Origin: Chlorella sorokiniana
Lineage: Eukaryota; Chlorophyta; Trebouxiophyceae; Chlorellales; Chlorellaceae
Length of the DNA: 64,000 bases
NCBI GenBank assembly: GCA_025917655.1
Contig: CP084608.1
Location: 1,798,001-1,862,000, forward strand
Direction of reading: 5' to 3'
The position numbers were made by a program, and so were the translations under genes. Shown in pieces: positions 36,293 to 52,300 of this stretch (positions are counted from its first letter, which is position 1; each line of letters begins with the position of its first letter). The notes under the pieces are model-generated. The model worked only from the letters and a program-made list of their open reading frames with translations. It had not been told where the DNA came from and did no database searches.

Positions 36293-38391
36293 ATGGAGGA
36301 TGTCCTTCTTCACACGGTGTCGCTGGACGACCAGCCCATGGCGAGCGCCGCCGCATGCTGTCGTCGCTGCTATCAAATCGATACATCGCCATGCTTTGAT
36401 TACTTTGCATATACAAACCTGGTTTCCCCGGCGTGCTGTGTGCAGGATGTGGACCTACATCCCACACAGCGGCTGCTCGCCTCCGGCGTCATAGACGGAC
36501 ACGCTGTATTGCACGACTTCACGGACGGTAGCGCAACGCAGAGACACCGAGTGAAGGTGTGCTGGATCCGGACTTCCACCCGCCGCCGCCAGCCGCTGCT
36601 GCACGGTGTCTTTTATGTGCTTCCACATTTCCACTAGGGGGCACGGAGCCCCACCGAAAGCGCCTTTTCGGTGCATCTGCAGGCTCACGGCAGCAGCTGC
36701 CGTGCGGTGCGCTTCTCGGGGACGGGCGGCTGCTCTACACGGCGTCCACCGACCGTTCCCTGCTGGCGGTGGATGCAGCCAGCGGCAAGGCGCAGGCACG
36801 CAAGAGCGACGCGCACGGCGACGCCATCAACCGCCTGGCCACGCTGAGTGAGACGGGGCTGGCGTCGGGGACGACGAGGGCGTGGTGAAGCTGTGGGACT
36901 CGCGGCAGGGCGACGAGGTTGCCGCGCTTGAGGCTCACTCAGGTGGGCGGCCGCTGTCAGGCTGGGAGGTGGGGTGGGTTGGGGGTGGATGGGTTGGATT
37001 CCTCACAGCAGGGTGTGCAGAACCTGTAAAACAGCGCGTAAATCGCATCATGCTCGTTACCCAAAGCTGCGCCATCAGCCGCCCCTCTGTTCCTTCACAA
37101 CGTGCCTCTGTCCCCCGCTGCGTCCAGATTACGTAGCCGACATGTGCGCCGTTCCCAGCAAGCATGCCCTGCTGTCAGTATCGGGGACGGCACGCTGGCG
37201 GTCATCGATCTGCGGACTCACAAGGTGGGAGGCGGGACGGAGCCGCGCTGAATCACGCGCTCATGCGGTTTGGAGCATGCACAACCGTTCAGCGCCGCCC
37301 GCAGCCTCCATCGCTGCCCAGGGTGTTCCCGCGCACCGCCCCGCAGATCCTGGCCCAGTCGGAGGGCGACGCCGACGACGAGCTGCTGTCGGTGGCGGTG
37401 GTGAAGGGGGCAAGAAGGTGGTGTGCGGCTCCACCAGCGGCGTGCTGGCGGTGTGGAGCTGGGGCTACTGGAACGACTGCTCCGACCGCTTCCCAGGTGG
37501 GTGCGCGTGGGAGCCACGGGTACTTCGCAATCTGGCGCACTGAGCTGAGGCATTCTCAGCACCGCACAAAGCCACGCCGTGCTGCCCGGCACGTCTGCGC
37601 ACTCCTGGTCTGTGCTGCCGCCTGTGCCCCTGCCACACACAACCTCCTCATCCCACCTCTCCAATCCCCCTCCCCCTCCCGGGCAGGCCACCCCGAGTCG
37701 GTGACGGCGCTGCTGCGGTACGACGATGACACGCTGCTGACGGGGTCCAGCGACGGCCTCATCCGCGTGCTGTCGGTGCAGCCCAACCGCATGCTGGGGG
37801 TGCTGGGGAGCACTCGGGTGGGTGGCCAGGCGGGGCCAGGTGGCGGGATGCAGGCAGGCAGCTGTCAGTGGGGCTGGTACTGGCTGCCTGCTGGGCTTGG
37901 GTGCTCTCTCAAGGACGGCCAGCGCAGCAGCGGAGCCTGGCACCCTTTCCAAATGAGCGTGTGCTTTGGCCGCCGCCTGTCTGACGTCTGTGCCTGCTGT
38001 CCCCCATCGCCGACGCGCAGACTACCCCATCGAGCGGCTGTCAATGTCTGCGGACCGTTCGGTGCTGGCCAGCGCGTCGCACGACAACACGGTGAAGCTG
38101 TGGGACCTGTCCCAGCTGGAGGACGACAGCGAGGAGGAGGAGGAGGAGGAGGGTGCGGGTGCGGCAGAGGAGCAGCAAGAGGCAGCAGCGGGCGGCGGCG
38201 CGGGCGCAGCAGAGGAGCAGCAGGCAGCAGCACCCGCAGCTGCCGCTGACAGCGACGACAGCGGCGACAGCGACAGCGAGGGCGGGCGGGCCAAGAAGCA
38301 GCGCAAGCGCAAGCAAAAGGGGCAGCACAAGATTCCCAAGAAGAAGCCAGCGCAGGGCAAGGGCGGCAACTTCTTTGCGGACTTGTTGTAG
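36293..38391 (+). CDS. WDR55: WDR55-like WD-repeat protein
   Basis: WDR55 proteins are nucleolar/nuclear beta-propellers needed for rRNA processing and, in plants, also linked to CUL4-DDB1. Exon 1 begins at 36293 (MEDVLLHTVSLDDQP). Exon 2 is 36446-36557 (DVDLHPTQRLLASGVIDGHA). Later exons give further blades, including RLLYTASTDRSLLAVD, GVVKLWDSRQGDEVAALEAH, VVCGSTSGVLAVWSWGYW, DDTLLTGSSDGLIRVLSVQ and SVLASASHDNTVKLWDLSQ. The tail is acidic (EEEEEEE), then Ala/Gln-rich, then very basic (KKQRKRKQKGQHKIPKKKP), ending GGNFFADLL; a basic C-terminus followed by FFADL fits the family. Four one-base contractions occur at 36718-36721, 36867-36870, 37183-37186 and 37406-37410. Each falls inside a blade. 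Confidence 0.87.
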
Positions 38392-38974
38392 CATCACTGG
38401 TGCCCCTGGGCCACGTTTATTCCCCTCCATTGACGCGTGACTGACAATGACACCTGACCTGCAAGCCGCACTTGCGCATTGTTACATCTCAGCACAGCTT
38501 TACCATGGTCAGGCCACATCAAGGGTGCTTGCAATGGCAATCATCAGCATGGCAGAGAGCGGTTGCTGGGGGCCTGCAAAGGGGGCCAGAGCAGCATGCC
38601 TTCATGACGCAGGTGGATCTGGCGGCAGCGGCAGCGGCAGCCAGCTGTCGTTGTGGGGCGTCAGTCGGGCGCTTGCTGTTTGCTTGTTATAGCTGTTTTC
38701 TGCATGTTCAGGCCACGTAGCATGCTCTGTGCAGGCCGTGAGCGGCTTACAAGGCCCAACACAAACGGCCCGTCTGCCTGACTGCAGCAGCTGTCATGAC
38801 AGCTATCCTTCCAGACTGGTGAGACATGCAGCACAACAGCTGTCAGCAGGATGGAAATACAGCCTTCGTCCCTGCATTCATGCCTTTCTGCTCTTCGTTT
38901 ACTCTTGCATTTGAGCGTGGTAGTCCAAGCACAGTCCTTGCAGGCTCCTGTCCACTCAGCCAGCTCTGTGCACC
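38392..38974. other. Intergenic region
   Basis: Separates the WDR55-like gene from the CAP gene on the same strand. Sequence is of mixed composition, with no domain-bearing frame. It probably holds one 3' UTR and one promoter, with no identifiable element. Confidence 0.5.
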
Positions 38975-40681
38975 ATGTCTCGCTGCTGCCTGGCCCTTGC
39001 CTTGCTGCTGGCGGGCGCCCTGCCCCTGTACACTCCCATCCCTGCAAATGCTCGCCTTCTCAGCTGGACACGGCCTCAGGGAGCCCTTGAGACTGCCAAC
39101 TCCGACCCCTCTTCCACGGCTTCTTCTCTGCCAGGCGAGTGAGGCACTTGGGGTCGGTGTAAGTGAAAATTGCTGTGGAAGCAGCACTGAGTTCAAACCT
39201 TCATGGCAGCAGCGGCATGCGCTCAAATTCAAAGGCGCAGCTGCAGCCTGGAAACCGTGGTAGCAGCCGTATTTCGTTCTTGTCCTTGAAATTGTGCTTG
39301 ATCATCAGCGCTTGGTAGTGCTTGATTGGCTGCCTGCCAGTCTGACACACCAGCGGCGGCAGCCCGCGCTCTAGGTGCACTGCGAGACAGCCCTTCACAG
39401 TTCTGGTCTGTCCGCAGCACAATTTCTTCAGCACTGTTTGCTGATATCAAACTTTCCCGTGCCCCCTTGCAGGAATCAGCCCCGCCTCTTCTTCCACAAC
39501 CAGTGACCAGCAGGCAGCTCTGAACTCGACTGTTCAGCAAACCACTGGCAGTGTGGACACCACTGACATTTTGAGCTCGAGCGGCCGTGTCCAGGCCAGC
39601 TTGGGCACCCGCTACACCTCTGCTGGTGGCTCCGCGCCCTCCGCCCTGACTGGCTTCGCCTCCAGCCGTTCCCGCGCTTCAGCCGGGTCCTTCTTTCGGC
39701 AGCGCCCTGCCTCTCCTCTGCCCGGTGCCTCTCCCGTGCGCTCGCCCTCCCCAACAGTCTCTCCCTCTCCCGTGCGCTCGCCCTCCCCAACAGTCTCTCC
39801 CTCTCCCGTGCGCTCACCATCGCCCAGCCCGTCTCCCTCTCCTGTGCGCTCGCCCTCCCCAACAGTCTCTCCCTCTCCCGTGCGCTCGCCCTCTCCAACA
39901 GTCTCTCCCTCTCCCGTGCGCTCTCCCTCCCCCACCATCTCCCCCTCTCCTACCCGCTCACCCTCGCCCGCCTCCTCTCCTTCCCCGTCTCCCAGTCCGG
40001 CCGGCAGCGGCTCTTCACAGTGCCCTGATGTTCAGGCAGTTCTAGAGGCTCACAACTCTGCTCGCGCCCGCCACGGCGCTGCCCCCTCACTTGGAGCGAT
40101 AGCTTGGCAGCCGCAGCCCAGGCCGCCACCGCCACCTGCGTCATGAAGGTGAGAGGGGGCTGGGCCCAGCAATCTGCCAGGTGCCTGCGCTCGCCATGAG
40201 CCAGGCACACCCCTCACCGCTCCTCCTCCGCTGCCGCGCCCGCCCGCAGCACACCAGCGGCGGTGAAAACCTGGCCATCGGCGTGCGCTCGTGCACCGCT
40301 GGCGTCAACCTGTGGGCAGCCGAAGAGAGGCTGTGCCCTGGCTTCTGCGACTGGTCAACTTCTACAGGCCACTGGACACAGGTCCGTCTTCATCACGTGC
40401 ATGTCTGCCTTGAATATTGGGTTGTTCCATGCCAGCACGCGCCGGCACGCGGCATCCTGCCGGCGCTGCACCAGGCATGCCTCTTTCTCCAGCAGATCGG
40501 CCACCATGCACAGCATCCGACCTGCAGCCACCCCCAAACTATACCCCTTCCTCCTGTGCAGATGATTTGGAAGGGCACCACCCAGGTCGGCTGTGGCTTT
40601 GCCGCAAGCTGCGGCTATGTCGTCTGCCGGTACTCCCCACCTGGGAACGTCTTGGGCCAATTTCCTCAGAACGTCAGCTGA
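38975..40681 (+). CDS. Secreted CAP/PR-1-like protein with Ser-Pro linker
   Basis: CAP-superfamily proteins are secreted; the molecular role varies and is not predictable here. Four exons: 38975-39134, 39473-40148, 40250-40381 and 40562-40681. The N-terminus is a clear signal peptide ([18 protein letters not shown]). A Ser/Thr-rich region and a long Ser-Pro-Val-Arg repeat linker follow, as in algal extracellular-matrix proteins of the pherophorin type. The CAP domain carries [19 protein letters not shown], then [29 protein letters not shown] and the closing [18 protein letters not shown]. The first intron starts with GC (CAG/GCGAGT). The frame breaks at 40082-40086 in a C run; one added C gives [15 protein letters not shown] as expected. 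A second, partial copy lies inverted at 48361-49040. Confidence 0.88.
39724..39965 (+). repeat. Tandem ~36-base repeat encoding Ser-Pro-Val-Arg linker
   Basis: Imperfect tandem units of about 36 bases (some shortened) encode [12 protein letters not shown]-like blocks in the CAP protein. Units differ by few bases, which suggests expansion by slippage or unequal exchange. Such Ser-Pro-rich rods are usually hydroxylated and glycosylated in green-algal cell walls. Confidence 0.85.
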
Positions 40682-43395
40682 GCGGCGCACGGCCGCCCAT
40701 AGCGCTCGCCACAGCAGCAGCCGCTAGTGCACCTTGTTCATGCCGGCGCGCTGCTGCTGATGATCTGCTTGCAGTCCCCACACAACCTGCCTGCTATCCT
40801 TGAAGCCTGCCCTTACACCTCCCCGTGCTGTGCCTTGCAATTCTCCACACCGCTGCCTGCAAGATCCTTGACCTCTACCCTGGCACATCGGCTTGATGTA
40901 CCTTGACGATGATCAGACTTTTGCTGAGATGCAAAGATCCTCGTTTCCTCAAGTGTGGCTCGACAGTCAAGCCAAGGTTTCAGCCGCTGATCAGTTCACG
41001 AGGGCTCGCCGCCATGCGCAATCAACTGATCCAGTGCCGCCGCCACTTGTGCCGCCACCTGGCTCAGGCCCGCATCGTCCCGCACCCAGCCCCGCATCTG
41101 CTCCTTGATAACCCCGCCTTGAGCCGGAAGTGACGCCTGCACGATGAAACAGACACCTGTGGGCTGCCATTTCCGCGCAGAGCAGTTGGTGGCGCTTGCA
41201 GGCCGTGCACGCTGAGCAGGGGAAACACTGCAGCGCTCACCTGACCACGTCGTCAAACCCGGAGGGCGGGCGCTGCAGCTGTCCCAGCACCGCCACCTGC
41301 AGCGTGCGGTGCCGCAGCTCGCGGTTGTAGTTGGACGACTGAGCGGCGCCTCTGCGGTTGTCATGCAGGCAGCGGAATGGACGCTGAGCAGCCCAAATGC
41401 GAGCAGTTGCAGGCCACGCACGGCACAATGAGCTGAAATTGCTAGCGGTGCATCATCGCAACATTTGCAGGTGCCAACGCCCCCGGGCCCAGCGGCGGCG
41501 CCCGACTCACTGCGCGGTTCCCTCCCTGCCTTGGTAGCCAGGTTCGTTGAAGTACGGGTCGGCAGTGCCCAGGATCATGCTCTGGATGCTGATGAGCACC
41601 TGCACCAGCGCACGCAGCAGGCTGCTCCACCTCAGCACAGGCTCACACCCGAGCCGGCACGCCAAGTCCCTTCAGCCACTCCACCTCCACCAGCTGCCCA
41701 CTCGCCTGCAGCAGCGTGCTCTGCCCAGGCTGCCAGCCTGGGCCCGGCCAGGTGCCCAGCAGGGAGAGGCAGACGTCGCCGCCGTTGTACAGGTTTGGGT
41801 TGAAGCGCACGCTGCCGCCGCCAGTGGTCAAGAAGTGCACCTGCGCAGCAGCGCAGAGGAAGGACTCGCGACCAGTACCCAGGCTGGCGCCAGCTGCAGG
41901 CGCCCGAGAGGCGCTCAATGCAAGGCCGCACCTTAGGTGGGCGGTTGGGGTAGTCTGGGGGAGCAGGATGTCAAAGGCGAAAGCCCCGTTTGCGTAGGGC
42001 GTGTCGGGGGAGCCAGGATGACCGCACTGCGAGGGGTGGTGCCAAGGTTGGGATGTGCACCCACAGTCAGGCGGGAGCAGCCCCTGGTGCGACGGCAAGA
42101 AGGCTGATGCCAGCTGGAACAGAGGGCATCGGCATTGGCAAGAGCGAAAGGGTGCGCCAGGGAGAGCAGCGGGCCCCCCTCACCGCAGCACATCCATGCG
42201 GTCGTCGTCCATGGCGGCAAACACGGAGCTCTCCCACGCCAGCGGCAGCTGCCCCGCAAGGCTGGCCACCTCACGAGTGATGCGCCGCAAGCGCTCGCTC
42301 ACGCCACCTGCAACGGCCGGAGGTTGGCACCCAATTTGCTTGCTGGAATGCTGGAAAGAGCAGCCGCACGCCAGCCTGCACATGCCCAAGACAACAGGTG
42401 CAGGGCTCACCGTTTCCAGCTGCCGCCTGCTCGCGGAAGTAGTGGTCCCGCAGGGGCACAGACTGGAAGAGCAGCGGCTTCAGCTGCTCCATGTACTGCT
42501 GCCGCTGGATCCCCTGCTCGCTGGCAACGGTGTCCATCGCTGCGGGTGGCTGCTGCTGCGCCTGCTGCGGGCCCTGTGTGCTGGACAGCCAAACATCCAC
42601 CGCCTGCGGAACAGGTGCAGGCCCCTGGGTGCTGCACTTTTCCCTGAGGCAGCTGGGCGGCCTAAGAAGCACAATCAAATGTGTGGCCGGCGCGGCAGGG
42701 GACCCTCTGTGAAGGCACCCCTCCCCCTCCCCAGAGGGCTGTGCCGCCCACCCACCTCTTGCACCCGCTGGCAGCAGTCAGACACATCCAGGATCGCCCC
42801 CACGAGACACACATCCTCCTCGTCCCCCTCCGCAGCCAGCTGCTCTGCATTGCGGCGGAAGATGTCGGCCTGCAGGCGCAGCCTGCAGGGCGTGCCAGCA
42901 GCTGGAGTCGCCGCGGCGGGCGTCGCTGTCGTCGCCGCTGCCGCCCGCCCTCTGCCCCTTCCCTGCTGGCCCGGCGGCAGGGGCCTTTGCCGCAACGCGG
43001 CGAGCGCTTCCCGGCCCCCGCCACGGCCGCTGGCGGCGCGCCCCGCATCTGCTCCTTGCTCCGGCTGGGGCCCCTGCTGCTGCTGCTCCTGCGGCGGCGG
43101 CTTGAGCAACTCGCTGTCTGCCGGCTGGAGCAGCAGTGGCAAGAGTTCCAAGGAGCCTGCAACAGGTGGGGAAGCCTGCACATAGGCACAAGAGCCGGTG
43201 CATACAACCATCAAGAGATCACTCCAAAGAAGGACCTCCCTTGAACTCACCTGCCAGGTCAGCAACCAGCCCAAACACCTCGACGTACAGCCGGCGCCGG
43301 CTGCTGACGTCCATCAGGCTGTCGTTGTGCAGCAGCAGGCGCAGCAGCGGCGCCAGGGGGCCGCCGCGCAGCACGCCCAGCAGCGGAAGCGCCAG
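40005..43395. repeat. Left arm of a large inverted duplication
   Basis: This segment (CAP-domain exons plus the 3' two thirds of the E2 gene) reappears reverse-complemented at about 45597-49045. The E2 and spacer parts, introns included, are nearly identical by eye, and the two E2 stop codons pair at 40996 and 48046. The CAP end has diverged more. About 2.2 kb of unique E2 5' sequence separates the arms. Confidence 0.9.
40682..40995. other. Spacer between convergent CAP and E2 genes
   Basis: Lies between two stop codons on opposite strands and contains both 3' UTRs. Its counterpart, inverted and almost identical, is at 48047-48360. No other element was seen. Confidence 0.6.
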
Positions 43396-45227
43396 CGGCT
43401 GCACCGGCTGGTGGGGCGCGGCTGCAGGCAGAGCAAGACGCAGCGAGCTGAGGAATCCGATGCCGAGGGGCAACAGCGGACCAGCGATTGCTGTAGATGC
43501 TCCCACCTCTGGAGGCCTGCAAGCTGCTTCGTAGTCGCCGCAGCAAGTCCGCCACGGCGCCGTCCAGCTGCTGCTGCCGCCGCGCAGCATCCGCCACCTG
43601 CTTGCGGGCTGCCTGGGTGCTTTCCCTGGAACAGCCGCCGCCGCCATAGCCCACGCCTGCATGCAGGAGCATCGATACGGGTCACCCACTCACGGCAGGC
43701 AATGGCCAGCGTGCCCAGCTGGGTGGGTGTCAGGCAGACGCAAGCCTCGCACCTTTGGCTGGCTGCTTCCTGCGGGCGGTGCCGCGCCCCAGCCCCCGCC
43801 ACCGCCGCCACCAGGCGCTCCAAGCATGCCCGCAAGTGCGCCAGAGGGGCCGCCGTGAAAGCCAGTCTCCTCATCCTCATCCCCTGCACATGCCGTGGCA
43901 GGACTGAGCGGCTAGGCCGCCAGGGCAGCCTGGACTTGACAAGGCCAAAGGCCCCAGCTGGCTGCACAGCAAGAACGGACAGACGCACGAGAGCTGCCTG
44001 CTCAGGGCTCACCTTCTTCATCATCATCATCCTCATTCTCATCGACGCATGGGTAGCCCTCCCCATCAGCATGTATTCCAAGCTCATCGCCGGAATAGCC
44101 GGCAAGCTGGGCAGCGCTTGGCAGCTTGCCGTCCACCAGCGCATTGCGCAGCGCGCACAGCATGCCCGCAACTTCCAAGCACCGCTCCGCCACCATCTCT
44201 TCAGTGGACTGCCCTGCCGCGCCGCTGGATGCTCCAAGCGCCCCTGAGCGGCCTGGCGAGCTGGCCAAGTCCACCGGCGACCCAACCAAATCCACATAGT
44301 CCTCCGCTCCGCTGCCCTGTGGTGGGCGCTCCACGCCGCTTGGCGGCACGTCTCCGCTGCCAGCCATTGCAGCGGCGGCCGCCCACATGGCCGCATCGAT
44401 CTGCAGGCCGCCGCAGAGTCGCAACTTGGCACACTGTGGCTACGGGACAAGCAAGGAGAGACGATGCAGCCGGTGCTCTGCAGGACCGGCCGAGCGCACC
44501 TGGCCGGCACGTCGGGGCCCAGCAGCGCCTCTAAATCGCGCCTCGTCACCGGCAGGCCACAACCCTGCGCAGCAGCAAGAGCAAGCCAGTGCAGCAGTGG
44601 TGGGCGCAGGCATGATCTGTCCCTGCAGCCAGGACAAGGGGGTCCATGCAGGGATGCAACACGTGCATCACCAGCCTTGCCTGGTTTGGGCAGCACAAGA
44701 GGCGTGCAAGCGGCAACAGCCTCTGGGGCAGCGCCGCCACTGCCCGCTGCAGATGCCGCTGGGCTGCGACCTCCGCCATGCGGCACCCGCAATCCAGCGC
44801 ATAGCTGCCCAGCTGCAGCATGTCCCCGTCCTGGGCCGTGGTGGCAGGTGCGCCCTCCGCATCCGCTCTGCTGACCAGCTGTGCATTTTCGTGGCTGCTA
44901 TCATCAACACCCAGGGCCATCAACTCATTCTGCTCCTGCCGGTGCGCCTGCTGCCGCAGTGCTCCAATGTCGGCTCTTTGCAAGCTAGTATTCGAGCGTT
45001 CAGCTGAACAGAGCTCACATGCCAGGTAAGATGCAGGATTCAAGAAAGTGCAAGCCTGGCAGGCCCAGCCACCTGCACACGGAGTCGGCAGCCACAACAA
45101 GATAGTGACAGCTTGCGCTGGCAGCGGCGGCATGGAGGCGGATCTCTGCCGCTGGCCTACATGTGTCGTCTTGTGCCGCGCATGCATCATCGTCGTCGCT
45201 CGAGACAAGGTTCACGAGCTCGGCCAT
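40996..45227 (-). CDS. BIRC6-like E2 ubiquitin-conjugating enzyme with RanBP2 zinc finger
   Basis: A large E2, probably an E2/E3 hybrid, that transfers ubiquitin. The start at 45227 gives [14 protein letters not shown]; an in-frame Met at 45401 is possible. A RanBP2-type zinc finger lies at about 44990-45065 ([20 protein letters not shown]). The middle region is acidic and Ala/Gln-rich, with a helical repeat-like segment ([20 protein letters not shown]). The C-terminal UBC fold contains [13 protein letters not shown], the active-site Cys in [18 protein letters not shown] (codon 41769-41771), [18 protein letters not shown] and a late [20 protein letters not shown] helix. These match BIRC6 closely. 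The frame breaks near 41955, where one G restores QDYPNRPPK. The 3' two thirds is duplicated in inverted orientation. Not all middle exons are phased. Confidence 0.82.
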
Positions 45228-45590
45228 GGCCACGCGTTCGGGCTTCCGCCCTTCCGAGAACTCAAAGCGGGTTGTGGCCCGCCCTTGTAACACAATGATG
45301 CAATCCAGAATCCACGCCCGCGATGTTACAAAGGCGCGGCGCGCATGGGACTCCAGTGGTACAGAGAAGCGCAGCGCCGCCAGCGTGAGTTCGGCGCGCA
45401 ACGCGCATTTGCAGCCTAGTGGTCAATCACATCACCTAGTGGTCAATCACTAAAGAAAAGGTCAATGAAGCAATTAATTCGAAGCATTGTTTCCTTACGA
45501 GTTCTGCAATCACATGATCAGCGCATCACGCCTGCTGGCACCCCCTACGCCGTGCCTCTGCGCTCGGCCGCACTTGCTGCCCTTGGCTCT
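45208..45590. repeat. Direct repeat copy 1: E2 5' region and flank
   Basis: The first codons and upstream flank of the E2 gene. They match 49050-49365 in the same orientation with scattered substitutions. This copy contains an extra short tandem duplication of a CCTAGTGGTCAATCAC unit at about 45416-45451. The far end resembles the 3' end of the glycosyltransferase gene at 49306-49370, so the right part of this repeat derives from that gene's tail. Confidence 0.85.
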
Positions 45591-45596
45591 TGTTGA

Positions 45597-48046
45597 GCCC
45601 TTCCGCTGCTGGGCGTGCTGCGCGGCGGCCCCCTGGCGCCGCTGCTGCGCCTGCTGCTGCACAACGACAGCCTGATGGACGTCAGCAGCCGGCGCCGGCT
45701 GTACGTCGAAGTGTGGCCTGGTTGCTGACCTGGCAGGTGAGTTCAAGGGAGGACCTTCTTTGGAGTGATCTCTTGATGGTTGTATGCACCGGCTCTTGTG
45801 CCTATGTGCAGGCTTCCCCACCTGTTGCAGGCTCCTTGGAACTCTTGCCACTGCTGCTCCAGCCGGCAGACAGCGAGTTGCTCAAGCCGCCGCCGCAGGA
45901 GCAGCAGCAGCAGGGGCCCCAGCCGGAGCAAGGAGCAGATGCGGGGCGCGCCGCCAAGCGGCCGTGGCGGGGGCCGGGAAGCGCTCGCCGCGTTGCGGCA
46001 AGGCCCCTGCCGCCGGGCCAGCAGGGAAGGGGCAGAGGGCGGGCGGCAGCGGCGACGACAGCGACGCCCGCCGCGGCGACTCCAGCTGCTGGCACGCCCT
46101 GCAGGGGGCTGCGCCTGCAGGCCGACATCTTCCGCCGCAATGCAGAGCAGCTGGCTGCGGAGGGGGACGAGGAGGATGTGTGTCTCGTGGGGGCGATCCT
46201 GGATGTGTCTGACTGCTGCCAGCGGGTGCAAGAGGTGGGTGGGCGGCACAGCCCTCTGGGGAGGGGGAGGGGTGCCTTCACAGAGGGTCCCCTGCCGCGC
46301 CGGCCACACATTTGATTGTGCTTCTTAGGCCGCCCAGCTGCCTCAGGGAAAAGTGCAGCACCCAGGGGCCTGCACCTGTTCCGCAGGCGGTGGATGTTTG
46401 GCTGTCCAGCACACAGGGCCCGCAGCAGGCGCAGCAGCCACCACCCGCAGCGATGGACACCGTTGCCAGCGAGCAGGGGATCCAGCGGCAGCAGCAGCAG
46501 GAGCAGCAACCGGCAGCTGACTCCCCGCGCTGCGGCAGCAGTACATGGAGCAGCTGAAGCCGCTGCTCTTCCAGTCTGTGCCCCTGCGGGACCACTACTT
46601 CCGCGAGCAGGCGGCAGCTGGAAACGGTGAGCCCTGCACCTGTTGTCTTGGGCTTGTGCAGGCTGGCGTGCGGCTGCTCTTTCCAGCATTCCAGCAAGCA
46701 AATTGGGTGCCAACCTCCGGCCGTTGCAGGTGGCGTGAGCGAGCGCTTGCGGCGCATCACTCGTGAGGTGGCCAGCCTTGCGGGGCAGCTGCCGCTGGCG
46801 TGGGAGAGCTCCGTGTTTGCCGCCATGGACGACGACCGCATGGATGTGCTGCGGTGAGGGGGGGGGGGGGATGCTGCTCTCCCAGGCGCACCCTTTCGCT
46901 CTTGCCAATGCCGATGCCCTCTGTTCCAGCTGGCATCAGCCTTCTTGCCGTCGCACCAGGGGCTGCTCCCGCCTGACTGTGGGTGCACATCCCAACCTTG
47001 GCACCACCCCTCGCAGTGCGGTCATCCTGGCTCCCCCGACACGCCCTACGCAAACGGGGCTTTCGCCTTTGACATCCTGCTCCCCCAGACTACCCCAACC
47101 GCCCACCTAAGGTGCGGCCTTGCATTGAGCGCCTCTCGGGCGCCTGCAGCTGGCGCCAGCCTGGGTACTGGTCGCGAGTCCTTCCTCTGCGCTGCTGCGC
47201 AGGTGCACTTCTTGACCACTGGCGGCGGCAGCGTGCGCTTCAACCCAAACCTGTACAACGGCGGCGACGTCTGCCTCTCCCTGCTGGGCACCTGGCCGGG
47301 CCCAGGCTGGCAGCCTGGGCAGAGCACGTTGCTGCAGGCGAGTGGGCAGCTGGTGGAGGTGGAGTGGCTGAAGGGACTTGGCGTGCCGGCTCGGGTGTGA
47401 GCCTGTGCTGAGGAGGAGCAGCCTGCTGCGTGCGCTGGTGCAGGTGCTCATCAGCATCCAGAGCATGATCCTGGGCACTGCCGACCCGTACTTCAACGAA
47501 CCTGGCTACCAAGGCAGGGAGGGAACCGCGCAGTGAGTCGGGCGCCGCCGCTGGGCCGGGGGCGTTGGCACCTGCAAATGTTGCGATGATGTACCGCTAG
47601 CAATTTCAGCTCATTGTGCCGTGCGTGGCCTGCAACTGCTCGCATTCGGGCTGCTCAGCGTCCATTCCGCTGCCTGCATCACCACCGCAGAGGCGCCGCT
47701 CAGTCGTCCAACTACAACCGCGAGCTGCGGCACCGCACGCTGCAGGTGGCGGTGCTGGGACAGCTGCAGCGCCCGCCCTCCGGGTTTGACGACGTGGTCA
47801 GGTGAGCGCTGCAGTGTTTCCCCTGCTCAGCGTGCACGGCCTGCAAGCGCCACCAACTGCTCTGCGCGGAAATGGCAGCCCACAGGTGTCTGTTTCATCG
47901 TGCAGGCGTCACTTCCGGCTCAAGGCGGGGTTATCAAGGAGCAGATGCGGGGCTGGGTGCGGGACGATGCGGGCCTGAGCCAGGTGGCGGCACAAGTGGC
48001 GGCGGCACTGGATCAGTTGATTGCGCATGGCGGCGAGCCCTCGTGA
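45597..48046 (+). pseudogene. Truncated inverted copy of the E2 gene
   Basis: Begins abruptly inside the E2 ([18 protein letters not shown]), without the zinc finger or N-terminal half. Soon after the breakpoint it has a small deletion at about 45715 that shifts the frame relative to the full gene and gives an early stop. Downstream it is nearly intact: the UBC fold is present with its active-site Cys (codon 47272-47274), and the same frame break as in the full gene recurs near 47088. It ends at 48046. A shorter protein starting at an internal Met, such as that at 46545, is conceivable. No promoter of its own is evident, so I call it a pseudogene or fragment. Confidence 0.7.
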
Positions 48047-49045
48047 ACTGATCAGCGGCTGAAACCTTGGCTTGACTGTCGAGCCACACTTGAGGAAACG
48101 AGGATCTTTGCATCTCAGCAAAAGTCTGATCATCGTCAAGGTACATCAAGCCGATGTGCCAGGGTAGAGGTCAAGGATCTTGCAGGCAGCGGTGTGGAGA
48201 ATTGCAAGGCACAGCACGGGGAGGTGTAAGGGCAGGCTTCAAGGATAGCAGGCAGGTTGTGTGGGGACTGCAAGCAGATCATCAGCAGCAGCGCGCCGGC
48301 ATGAACAAGGTGCACTAGCGGCTGCTGCTGTGGCGAGCGCTATGGGCGGCCGTGCGCCGCTCAGCTGACGTTCTGAGGAAATTGGCCCAAGACGTTCCCA
48401 GGTGGGGAGTACCGGCAGACGACATAGCCGCAGCTTGCGGCAAAGCCACAGCCAACCTGGGTGGTGCCCTTCCAAATCATCTGCAGAGGAGGAAGGGGTG
48501 TAACCCCTTGTTTGATGAATGGGTGCAGGTCTGATGCTGTGCATGATGGCTGATGAGGAAAACCCTTCATGCAAGGCAGCTGTGTGAGTGATGAAGACGG
48601 ACCTGTGTCCAGTGGCCGGTGGAAGTTGACCAGTCGCAGAAGCCAGGGCACAGCCTCTCTTCGGCTGCCCACAGGTTGACGCCAGCGGTGCACGAGCGCA
48701 CGCCGATGGCCAGGTTTTCACCGCCGCTGGTGTGCTGCGGGCGGGGGCGGCAGCGGAGGAGGAGCGGTGAGGGGTGTGCCTGGCTCATGGCGAGCTCAGG
48801 CACCTGGCAGATTGCTGGGCCCAGCCCCCTCTCACCTTCATGACGCAGGTGGCGGTGGCGGCCTGGGCTGCGGCTGCCAAGCTATCGCTCCAAGTGAGGG
48901 GGCAGCGCCGTGGCGGGCGCGAGCAGAGTTGTGAGCATCAAGCACTGCCTGTGCGTCGGGACACTGGGACGAGCCGCTGCCGCCGGCAGGTGGACTGGGG
49001 ACGGGGAAGGGGAGGGGCTGGGGGAGGGCAATGGCCACGGGTCCA
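45597..49045. repeat. Right arm of a large inverted duplication
   Basis: Reverse complement of about 40005-43395. The inner breakpoint is near 45597, inside an E2 coding segment. The outer breakpoint is near 49045, inside the Ser-Pro linker of CAP. Differences from the left arm include a ~47-base block at about 46490-46540, the CAP intron and several homopolymer lengths. Confidence 0.9.
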
Positions 49046-49206
49046 AGAAACGCCCTTCCGAGAGCGTGAAGCGGGTTGTGGGCCGCCCCTTGCAACACAA
49101 TGATGCAATCCAGAATCCCCTCCCGCGATGTTATAAAGGCGCGGCGCGCATGGGACTCCAGTGGTACAGAGAAGCGCAGCGCCGCCAGCGTGAATTCAGC
49201 GCGCAA
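48361..49206 (-). CDS. Chimeric CAP-domain reading frame behind a copied E2 5' region
   Basis: Partial copy of the CAP gene: exons 48361-48480, 48603-48734 and 48836 to about 49040, the first two equal in length (120 and 132 bases) to those of the full gene. The CAP signatures ([41 protein letters not shown]) are retained. The signal peptide and Ser-Pro rod are missing. Instead the frame continues upstream, without a stop, into sequence copied from the E2 5' region, reaching an ATG at 49206 (MRAEFTLAALRFSVPL). If expressed, it would be a CAP domain without an obvious secretion signal, driven by an E2-type promoter. It shares the short C run of the full gene (48898-48902). The intron is shorter and partly different. 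Expression is unproven, so it may be a pseudogene. Confidence 0.6.
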
Positions 49207-49365
49207 CGCGCGTTTGCAACCTAGTGGTCAATCACTTTTAAAGAAAAGGTAAATGAAGCAATTAGTTTGAAGCAATGTTTCCTGACAAGTTCTGCAATTA
49301 CATGATCAGCGCATCACGCCTCCTGGCACCCCCTCCGCCGTGACTCTGCGCTTTGCCGCACTTGC
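49050..49365. repeat. Direct repeat copy 2: E2 5' flank and glycosyltransferase 3' end
   Basis: Same orientation as 45208-45590. It holds a copy of the E2 upstream region, then a short AT-rich stretch, then the last codons and stop (49306) of the glycosyltransferase. Together with copy 1 it brackets the right arm of the inverted duplication. Confidence 0.85.
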
Positions 49366-52300
49366 TGCCCTCCGTTGCTCAACAAGCGCCCCACGATTCT
49401 TCTGTCCTTCCTCGTTGACTTCGAAGCCCACCCCGGGATGAATGACGTCGCACTCGGCGGCGGGCGGCTCCAGCTGCGGAAGCGAGGTGTCGTCGGCGAT
49501 GCGGGGCACGGCACCCAAGAACAGCACTGGAGCGGCCTCCATGCCAGCCGCTGCAGCGGTGACAGCCGCCGCATCCGCTTCGTCTGCGATCAGTGCTGCC
49601 GCAGGGCCATCTGCATCCACCCCTCCCGCGGCTACCCAGCGCTGATAGTAAAGGGTGTTGGCCTTGTTTGGCTGAGCCTGCAGCAGCATGGACATGCATG
49701 GACATGCAGGCCTGGCGGCAGGCGCATCAGCCAACCCCAGGTCCTCTGAAAGTGCCTGCTGCCTTCCGGGGAGGAGGTGGACCGCACTGTTACTGCAAAA
49801 CCCGCACCCACCTCCTCTGGCGATATGCTGCGATGGAGGAAGGCCACCGCGTCGGCATGCTGCACAAAGGCAGCGGGGTCGAAGCAGGGGCTGGGGTTCG
49901 GGCGGGGGTCGAGTATCTGTCGATGAAGCGGCGCCAGTGGCAGTAGGTGCGACCGGGCGCTGCGTGTCCGGGAAGCGCAGCACCTGCAGCAGGGACTGGA
50001 GGCGAGGTGAGGATCTCACGGCAACCTCTGCGCAGCGCGGCTCGGCGCCCACCTGGAAGCCATCCACGACTTCCTCCCACAGCGGCACCGTGGCCTCCAC
50101 CTCCTTCTCCCTCAGCCAATCCGTCGCCTCCGCCCTCCACACACCCACCCAGTCGCTGTCGCAGGGCGGGTTTGGCACCACCAGGCTGCGGCCCAGCGCG
50201 CGCCAGGCGAGCCAGCTGCAGGCATGGACAAGCAGCGGCAGGATCATCAGAGGTCGGCGGCGGAGCGGCAGCGCCTGCAACCTGTCCCCAGCAGAACACT
50301 TATGCTCTGCACCAACATCCTGATTGAAAGGCAGTCGAGGAAAGGTCCCAGTGGCGTGGGGTGGCCCCACCTTGGCCACCGCCTGCGCAAAGCCTTGCTC
50401 GGTCCTCGTGCGCATCTGCACCCCGGGCGCCAGCATGAGCAACCGGGGTCCTCCAGCCCCAACACGTTGCTGCCGGTGAACGCCTCCGTGACGTTCCAGT
50501 GCCACCTGGCGGGGCAAAGAGGAGCCGCAGGCAGAAGTGGCGGTGCGTGGAGAGGCGAGCAGGGCAGTGCTGAGGCGCGGCGGCGCCACCGCTCACCAGT
50601 CCATGCCACGGAACAAGTAGGCCTTCCAGGCCTTGTTCCCGGGCAGGTAGATGAGGTGCGATGCCACCTGCGCCACACACAGGGCAAGCGTCAGTCAACG
50701 CAGCTGAAGGCGGCGATGCAGGGGCCGGCGCTGAGGGAGGCTAATGGGCAGAGCTCACTTGGGCGGGAGGCTCGGTGGCGCCAAAGTAGCCCATTGTGCC
50801 ACGCAGGGCATACCTGCAGCAGTTCTTGGCTATCATAACGATGGCAACAGGCGGAAGCACCACCATCGCGCAGGCGGCGCTTACCCCGTTGCAAACCACT
50901 GCGGCAGGTAGGCAAAGTGCTCGGGTGGGATGGGAGGCTCTGGAGGCTCCCAGGGGAGCTCCATCTCTGGATAGGGCACGTCCGAGGCAGTTCGAACCAG
51001 CTGCACAGCGAGGAACAAGGGGCCGGGTCAGCAGAGGGCGGGGGCTGCCCTCTCAAGAGAGAGAGGGGCGTGCACAACATACGGTGGGGTGGGCGGCAAG
51101 AGCGTCCCGGCAGCTTCCCTCGCTGGCCCAAGCAGCGGGGGTTCAGGCCTGGTATGGCAGCTGGCTGCAGCCTGCGTCCCTGCCCACCTGCATGAACTGC
51201 TGAGACGCGTTGCCGCGGGTTGGGGAGAAGAACCAGCGGGCGTTATCCCGCCACCACTGCTCGTCGGGCGGCCGCGGCACGATGAGGTCGTTGATGGAGC
51301 AGGGGCGTGGATGCGGCGCCCGTCACCTGCAGGGACGCACCCACTGCGTGTTGTTGTGCAACCTCTGCCAGAGGCAGGTCCCTTTCCCCCCCCCCTTGTG
51401 GCTGCTGAGAGGGCGCGGCGCCCTGCCTGCAGGGCAAGCAGCCTGCAGAACAAGGGGCGGCGCGACGCACGTGGTGCCACTCCTTGGGCCACTGCACATT
51501 CTCGCACTGCAGCCGCTCCCAGCCGCTTGGCGTCATCAGGGCCTCCCACTGGGGGCGGATCTCGTCCGAGATGATGTTTTCCACGTGCATCAGCTTCGGC
51601 AGGCCAGAGGCCGCGGATGCCACCTGCAGGGACCAGCAGCAGCACTGGCGGCTTGAGCTGGCAGGCGATTGCGCCGCCGTGCGCTGGCTGTCAGGCTGGC
51701 GCAGACGACTCCTTGCCGGCCTTACCATTTCGGGCCAGGCCGCCTGCTCCCAGGTGTAGCCAGGGTGCCAGCCGGGTACACTGTCGTCATGTGCGTCTCG
51801 TTCTCGCGCTGCCTGCACGCACAGCGCAGCAGCGTGGACACGCTAGGTGGGGGCGCTCAGGGGCCAGGCAGCACCGCAACAAAGAGGTGCTGCTACGCTT
51901 GCCTGTAGGCACGGTCGGCATGCTCCACCGCCATCCAGGTGGAAGGCCCCGCGGGATGGGCACCCTGCCAGTACATCACCTGCGGCCAACGGCAGGCAGG
52001 CAGGCAGGATGCAAAACCACGCTGAATGCTAGCGTGTGCGGAGCATGCGCGCATGCATCGATATGCAGGTTGTAGGCCGCAAGGCGAGCGATGCGCACCC
52101 CGCAGTTGACCCCTGCACGGGATGTTGGTGGGGGCAGGCGTTGTCGTTTGGAAGCGTCAAATCACACCGGTGCAGCGCAGCGCAAATACCCGTCTGCCTG
52201 AAAGCTATTGGGGGCCAGGAACAGCCCGCCGCATGCGGCACTCACCGGCGCCGGTGGAGCCGTCCGAGCCGTCCTGCTGGAAGAGGGAGGTGAAGCGGTT

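What the first reader, a model, noticed from the sequence alone, without database searches (positions are those of the whole stretch)
48361..49206. Possible new chimeric gene: CAP domain placed under the E2 5' region
The duplication put a copy of the E2 upstream region directly before a CAP gene that lost its signal peptide and Ser-Pro rod. The frame is open from an ATG in the E2-derived part through the junction near 49045 into the CAP domain. Such promoter and N-terminus capture would change both expression and location of a normally secreted protein.
Basis: partly seen in the sequence, partly recalled or inferred. Interest (0 to 1): 0.72.

Follow-up and report, generated by a model that had tools for sequence, protein, structure and literature searches.

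The report
Truncated CAP gene copy, start lost
In what looks like a green-alga chromosome, an old inverted duplication placed a headless copy of a secreted-protein gene behind a copy of its neighbour's upstream region, but the borrowed start codon is gone, so the copy is more likely a partial duplicate kept similar by gene conversion than a working new gene.

Summary
The arrangement is real; the claimed chimeric reading frame is not. A 3.4-kb inverted copy with the 3' parts of a CAP gene (CAP1) and a BIRC6/UBE2Z-like E2 gene (E2a) lies beside the original, flanked by direct copies (D-a, D-b) of the E2 upstream region. The truncated CAP copy (CAP2) thus sits behind D-b. But none of the three ATGs between 49430 and the junction leads into CAP (they stop after 2, 1 and 6 codons), and E2's start position reads ATT (49032), in the CAP frame. 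The 92 codons open upstream hold no ATG; 27% of 9104 sampled minus-strand positions are as open. CAP exon 1 breaks frame at a C5 run in both copies, probably undercalling. Divergence is patchy: 8-16% in D, at CAP's junction side and in intron 2, 0-0.6% in the inner arms, 1.9% on the E2 side of junction 2; gene conversion fits. Against a plain pseudogene, 11 of 13 coding differences are synonymous. Best reading: an old partial duplicate, not translatable from AUG as assembled. Initiation at the in-frame AUU is the bold reading left open.

The parts
38975..40681 (+). CAP1, the complete parent: signal-peptide-like exon from ATG 38975, Ser-Pro rod in the exon from about 39472, CAP-domain parts up to 40148, 40250-40381 and 40562-40681
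   Evidence: translations and hydropathy, exon comparison, genome search
40996..45227 (-). E2a, complete E2 ubiquitin-conjugating gene; ATG at 45227, RanBP2-type zinc ribbon, UBC domain
45222..45583 (-). D-a: upstream region of E2a plus a remnant of the 3' end of the neighbouring gene
45585..45598 (+). junction 2 filler: 14 nt, a 13/14 inverted copy of 49377-49390
45599..48046 (+). E2b: inverted copy of the 3' part of E2a; lacks E2a's 5' part (43390-45227); net 2-nt loss close to junction 2
48361..48480 (-). CAP2 last exon, one synonymous difference from CAP1
48481..48602 (-). CAP2 intron 2, strongly diverged from CAP1 intron 2 but still GT...AG
48603..48734 (-). CAP2 middle exon, two synonymous differences from CAP1
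48836..49027 (-). CAP2 partial first CAP exon including a short remnant of the Ser-Pro rod; C5 run at 48898-48902 where the frame breaks (same run at 40082-40086 in CAP1)
49030..49032 (-). ATT at the position of E2's start codon, in frame with CAP2
49027..49371 (-). D-b: second copy of the E2 upstream region, continuous with the 3' end of the neighbouring minus-strand gene (its stop codon starts at 49308)

Best explanation
An old local rearrangement, probably by replication template switching, copied the 3' parts of the convergent genes CAP1 and E2a in inverted orientation into the region just upstream of E2, leaving a copy of that region on each side. This made a 5'-truncated E2 copy (E2b) and a 5'-truncated CAP copy (CAP2) behind D-b. 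Ectopic gene conversion has since kept the inner parts of the arms nearly identical, while the D copies, the CAP side of junction 1 and CAP intron 2 diverged. As assembled, CAP2 has no AUG in the E2-derived part that could start a CAP protein, so it is most likely a partial duplicate without a normal protein product, possibly transcribed from the D-b region. Shown: the anatomy, the missing ATG, the patchy divergence. Inferred: template switching, gene conversion, lack of product.
For: Arms 39961-40428/49028-48557 and 40496-43392/48554-45597, with direct repeats 45222-45583/49027-49371 flanking the second arm. Junction 2 carries a 14-nt filler, 13 of 14 letters an inverted copy of sequence next to D-b; an exact shared 10-mer arises in 54 of 20000 random pairs of stretches of the same sizes. 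Mismatches per ungapped column: D 25/329; CAP first-exon 5' part 10/64; rest of exon 1, intron 1 and most of exon 2 2/312; end of exon 2 to start of exon 3 23/160; exon 3 end and 3' regions 0/412; E2 with its introns 10/2226; E2 side near junction 2 3/154. The variance over 100-column bins, 12.8, exceeds all 2000 permutations (maximum 2.9); the longest identical run, 770 columns, narrowly exceeds all 2000 (maximum 756). No ATG leads into CAP and ATT stands at E2's start position.
Against: Of 13 differences in the 396 coding bases compared between CAP1 and CAP2, 11 are synonymous (dN/dS about 0.05; P 7e-6 if both copies were neutral, 9e-4 if only CAP2 were). Both amino-acid differences look derived in CAP1, judged by eye: CAP2's Ala is shared with paralogs L003 and L004, its Asp with L003 and L005; these 3 of the 9 paralog loci looked at gave a readable stretch there. 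So CAP2 shows no inferred amino-acid change of its own; in the 64-nt unconverted stretch a neutral copy would show none with probability 0.03-0.16. This hints that CAP2 encoded protein for part of its history. Its intron ends are intact. The E2 side of junction 2 has only 1.9% divergence, so not every junction flank is old-looking, and a history in two steps instead of one event plus conversion is not excluded.
Confidence: 0.68

Rival explanations
1. CAP2 is a working chimeric gene: transcribed from the D-b region and started at the near-cognate AUU at 49032 (context GCC AUU G), in frame with CAP, giving a CAP protein without signal peptide.
For: The ATT is in the CAP frame with G at -3 and G at +4; 11 of 13 coding differences are synonymous; both amino-acid differences look derived in CAP1; intron ends kept.
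Against: No AUG; AUU is recalled to be a weak start in eukaryotes; 14 other near-cognate codons lie in the same open frame, so this one is singled out by position and context only; a uORF of 6 codons at 49151 may lie upstream; being in frame has a prior of one third; with six cysteines in exons 2 and 3 the domain looks suited to the secretory pathway (inference).
Confidence: 0.12
2. CAP2 was a longer gene with its own start until a later deletion fused it to D-b; the synonymous pattern is the trace of that time, and it is now dead.
For: Synonymous excess together with no usable start now.
Against: The self-comparison of the window at E 1e-8 shows no second copy of CAP1's signal-peptide exon or upstream region, though a short or diverged remnant could be missed. 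The divergence of D (7.6%) and of CAP's junction side (15.6%, 64 columns) does not clearly separate two ages.
Confidence: 0.12
3. CAP2 receives its 5' end from the upstream neighbour by read-through and splicing (neighbour::CAP2 fusion).
For: The neighbour's last codons and CAP2 share a frame register (positions 49314 and 48951 both divide by 3); nine acceptor-like AG sites were listed at 49292-48945.
Against: Stops at 49308 and 49230 lie between; only one donor-like site by the pattern used (49431) was found in 49700-48940.
Confidence: 0.04
4. The inverted duplication is an assembly artefact (folded read or merged haplotypes).
For: The assembly seems to carry small errors: C/G runs of six are few and runs of five in excess, and plastid rbcL is split between two frames.
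Against: The D copies differ by 7.6%, CAP's junction side by 15.6%, intron 2 by 14.4% plus large indels, and a templated filler sits at junction 2; a folded read should give uniform identity.
Confidence: 0.04

Closest known systems
Partial and chimeric gene duplicates (review PMC3449122; passages seen)
   Same: A copy truncated inside the parent gene and joined to other sequence; the review proposes that conversion homogenises the shared part while the structurally different part escapes.
   Different: Here no start codon is available in the recruited sequence, and the copy arose inverted with a duplicated flank.
MMBIR / template-switch inverted duplications (PMC2621351, passages seen); short foldback inversions at breaks in yeast (PMC11724301, passages seen)
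   Same: Inverted duplication with duplicated flank and a short templated inverted insertion at a junction.
   Different: Inferred from one old, diverged locus; no microhomology was established at junction 1 (sequences printed, not scored).
CAP superfamily proteins (Pfam PF00188; nearest solved structures yeast Pry1 5ete, PR-1 P14a 1cfe)
   Same: Joined CAP2 pieces match Pry1 at E 1e-13 and P14a at 1.7e-9.
   Different: Of 4 CAP pieces scanned singly 2 matched PF00188, both under its cut-off, and 2 did not; exon 1 is frame-broken as assembled; CAP2 lacks a signal peptide.
BIRC6/UBE2Z/UBE2O-type E2 enzymes
   Same: E2 fragment matches BIRC6 3ceg at E 5.7e-24, UBE2Z 5a4p at 1.8e-21, UBE2O 8gxr at 7.2e-17.
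   Different: E2a has an N-terminal RanBP2-type zinc ribbon (22 bits, under the cut-off of 27).

Membership tests
Chimeric gene duplicate (expressed new gene) | Copy of one gene's part joined to a part of another locus | tested here: met
   D-b/CAP2 junction at about 49027
Chimeric gene duplicate (expressed new gene) | Open reading frame with a start codon across the junction | tested here: not met
   0 of 3 ATGs upstream of the junction reach CAP; ATT at E2's start position
Chimeric gene duplicate (expressed new gene) | Junction transcript and protein | not testable with these tools
   no RNA or proteome data held
Partial gene duplicate with gene conversion | Homology to the parent ends inside the parent gene | tested here: met
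   CAP2 begins in the last codons of CAP1's Ser-Pro rod
Partial gene duplicate with gene conversion | Patchwork of identical and diverged tracts | tested here: met
   variance and longest-run permutation tests; the patchwork is shown, conversion as its cause is inferred
CAP superfamily (PF00188) | Match to the CAP profile over its cut-off | tested here: inconclusive
   two CAP2 pieces at 16.9 (one TGA inside) and 16.4 bits against a cut-off of 21.1; CAP1 was not among the 11 matches listed. The joined pieces match Pry1 at E 1e-13
Pseudogene | Disabling changes not due to sequencing error and relaxed constraint | tested here: inconclusive
   start lost, but 11 of 13 coding differences are synonymous

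The most novel reading that the evidence does not exclude
A headless secreted CAP protein was recaptured by an E2 gene's upstream region and is made as an intracellular CAP protein from a non-AUG (AUU) start at exactly the former E2 start position, with its domain under purifying selection while conversion ties its inner exons to the secreted parent.
Probability: 0.1. Interest if true: 0.55.

Novelty: new member of a known kind. Interest (0 to 1): 0.27.

Why it matters
If CAP2 is made, it would be a case of promoter capture with relocation of a secreted domain and a non-AUG start. If not, it is a clear example of how an attractive chimeric-gene call weakens once the start codon, assembly indel errors and gene conversion are checked.

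Tried and rejected
Relatives elsewhere: E2 and CAP fragments in viral contigs and the E2 fragment in genome contigs gave no confirmed relative; the genome search states that this genome has no relatives there, so the event could not be dated by comparison. Rfam over 38000-52000 at gathering thresholds: 0 matches. Other copies of D-b or CAP2 in the genome: only the two local places of each were reported, by a search that scores best candidates only. Literature: 'inverted duplication' + 'chimeric gene' + 'green alga' found 0 papers; 'CAP superfamily' + 'Chlorella' 2 (listing only); some searches were seen as listings, apart from the three papers whose passages were seen. Codon usage as a guide to the direction of synonymous changes was considered and dropped, since a reversible process gives no direction from one pair. 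The C5 frame break as a disabling change of CAP2 was rejected because CAP1 shares it, and E2a and E2b break frame at C5 runs too. Calling E2b dead from its extra 47 nt was dropped: the length is one short of a whole number of codons and the assembly seems to have run-length errors.

Full report
Where it is. The window is positions 1798001-1862000 of contig C7 of a 38.8-Mb assembly of 15 contigs. Contig C15 carries a psbA gene that matches photosystem II D1 of solved structures and rbcL, so this is a photosynthetic eukaryote, in my reading a green alga. The species is not known.

Anatomy. CAP1 (plus strand, ATG 38975) has a hydrophobic N-terminus, a Ser-Pro rod and a CAP domain in three pieces. 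E2a (minus strand, ATG at 45227) converges on it. Its catalytic fragment is closest among solved structures to BIRC6, then UBE2Z and UBE2O, and a RanBP2-type zinc ribbon lies near the N-terminus (22 bits, under the cut-off of 27). To the right, an inverted copy of 39961-43392 occupies 45597-49028. The region upstream of E2 is present on both sides of it: D-a 45222-45583 and D-b 49027-49371; D-b is continuous with the 3' end of the next minus-strand gene. In the whole genome the search reported D-b and CAP2 only at themselves and at these local partners; it scores best candidates only.

The claimed reading frame. On the minus strand, E2-derived sequence passes into CAP-derived sequence at about 49027. 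Homology to E2 includes CGTGGCCAT; E2a continues with G to make ATG, the copy with T. ATGs at 49314, 49303 and 49151 stop after 2, 1 and 6 codons; two inside the CAP-derived part, 48938 and 48841, stop after 18 each. The CAP frame runs back 92 codons from the CAG at 48951 to a TGA at 49230 without an ATG, and ATT at 49032 is in that frame, one of 15 near-cognate codons there. Such openness is common here: 27% of 9104 sampled minus-strand positions are stop-free over 92 codons, and 63% of those contain an ATG, which this one does not. Run-length errors would not change this verdict, because the three short ATG frames contain no run of four or more equal letters (sequence).

The frame break inside CAP. 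Both CAP copies break frame at a C5 run (40082 and 48898), and the catalytic exon of both E2 copies changes frame at two C5 runs. In the window C/G runs number 518 of length 4, 196 of length 5 and 21 of length 6. In 15 stretches of 10 kb from 11 contigs they number 1307, 618 and 79, where extrapolation from shorter runs gives 354 and 96 for lengths 5 and 6: the excess at 5 is clear, the deficit at 6 against that extrapolation is slight. Plastid rbcL is also split between two frames, though not at a run of five. I read this as undercalling of runs, so the break does not count against CAP2 in particular; a real frameshift older than the last conversion is not excluded.

Age and homogenisation. 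Mismatches per ungapped column: D 25/329, CAP first-exon 5' part 10/64, next stretch 2/312, end of exon 2 through intron 2 to the start of exon 3 23/160, then 0/412, E2 with introns 10/2226, E2 side near junction 2 3/154. Clustering exceeds all 2000 permutations on both measures, on longest run only narrowly (770 against a maximum of 756). A single recent duplication or an assembly fold should give uniform identity; gene conversion of the inner arms after an old duplication explains the pattern, and a review proposes this for structurally different duplicates (PMC3449122, passages). The E2 side of junction 2, at 1.9%, is less diverged than the other flanks, so conversion must have reached close to it, or the history had more than one step.

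How it formed. Junction 2 holds 14 nt (45585-45598), of which 13 match the reverse complement of 49377-49390, beside D-b. Short templated inverted insertions of this kind are described for foldback repair in yeast (PMC11724301, passages), and inverted duplications with complex junctions are part of the template-switching model (PMC2621351, passages). An exact shared 10-mer in stretches of the same size arises in 54 of 20000 random pairs, though I looked after seeing it. No microhomology was established at junction 1.

Is CAP2 coding? Of 13 differences in 396 compared coding bases 11 are synonymous, dN/dS about 0.05; the rod remnant, with its indels, is not in this count. Both amino-acid differences look derived in CAP1, since paralogs share CAP2's residues in part (Ala in L003 and L004, Asp in L003 and L005; by eye, 3 readable of 9 loci looked at). 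That is the main evidence against a plain pseudogene. It rests on 10 differences in 64 nt plus 3 others, and conversion erases information elsewhere. It fits a period of coding, a non-AUG start, or changes mostly on the CAP1 branch.

Verdict. The arrangement is confirmed, the ATG-started chimeric frame is not. Most likely an old partial duplicate without a normal start; a non-AUG chimeric CAP protein is possible and testable.

Noticed in passing
window 45186-45227, minus strand: E2a begins [14 protein letters not shown], which resembles a SUMO-interacting motif (recalled, not tested), before a RanBP2-type zinc ribbon and a BIRC6/UBE2Z-like UBC domain; an unusual architecture if right.
   Followed up: partly
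window as a whole; L027-L041: C/G homopolymers of length 5 are in excess and drop sharply at length 6, as if runs were undercalled across the assembly; other 'frameshifted' genes in this genome should be read with this in mind.
   Followed up: yes
G000:C15:30946-30980 and G000:C15:77265-78005: Plastid rbcL is split between two frames, and a second Photo_RC-family gene shows one TAA inside; likely small assembly errors.
   Followed up: partly
G000:C8:364001-364271: RuBisCO large-chain-like pieces in a contig other than the plastid one (53.7 and 25.6 bits).
   Followed up: no
window 45416-45450: D-a holds two copies of CTAGTGGTCAATCAC where D-b holds one.
   Followed up: no
window 46495-46541: E2b carries 47 nt that E2a lacks, between GCGGCAGCAG repeats; perhaps E2a lost them by slippage.
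   Followed up: partly
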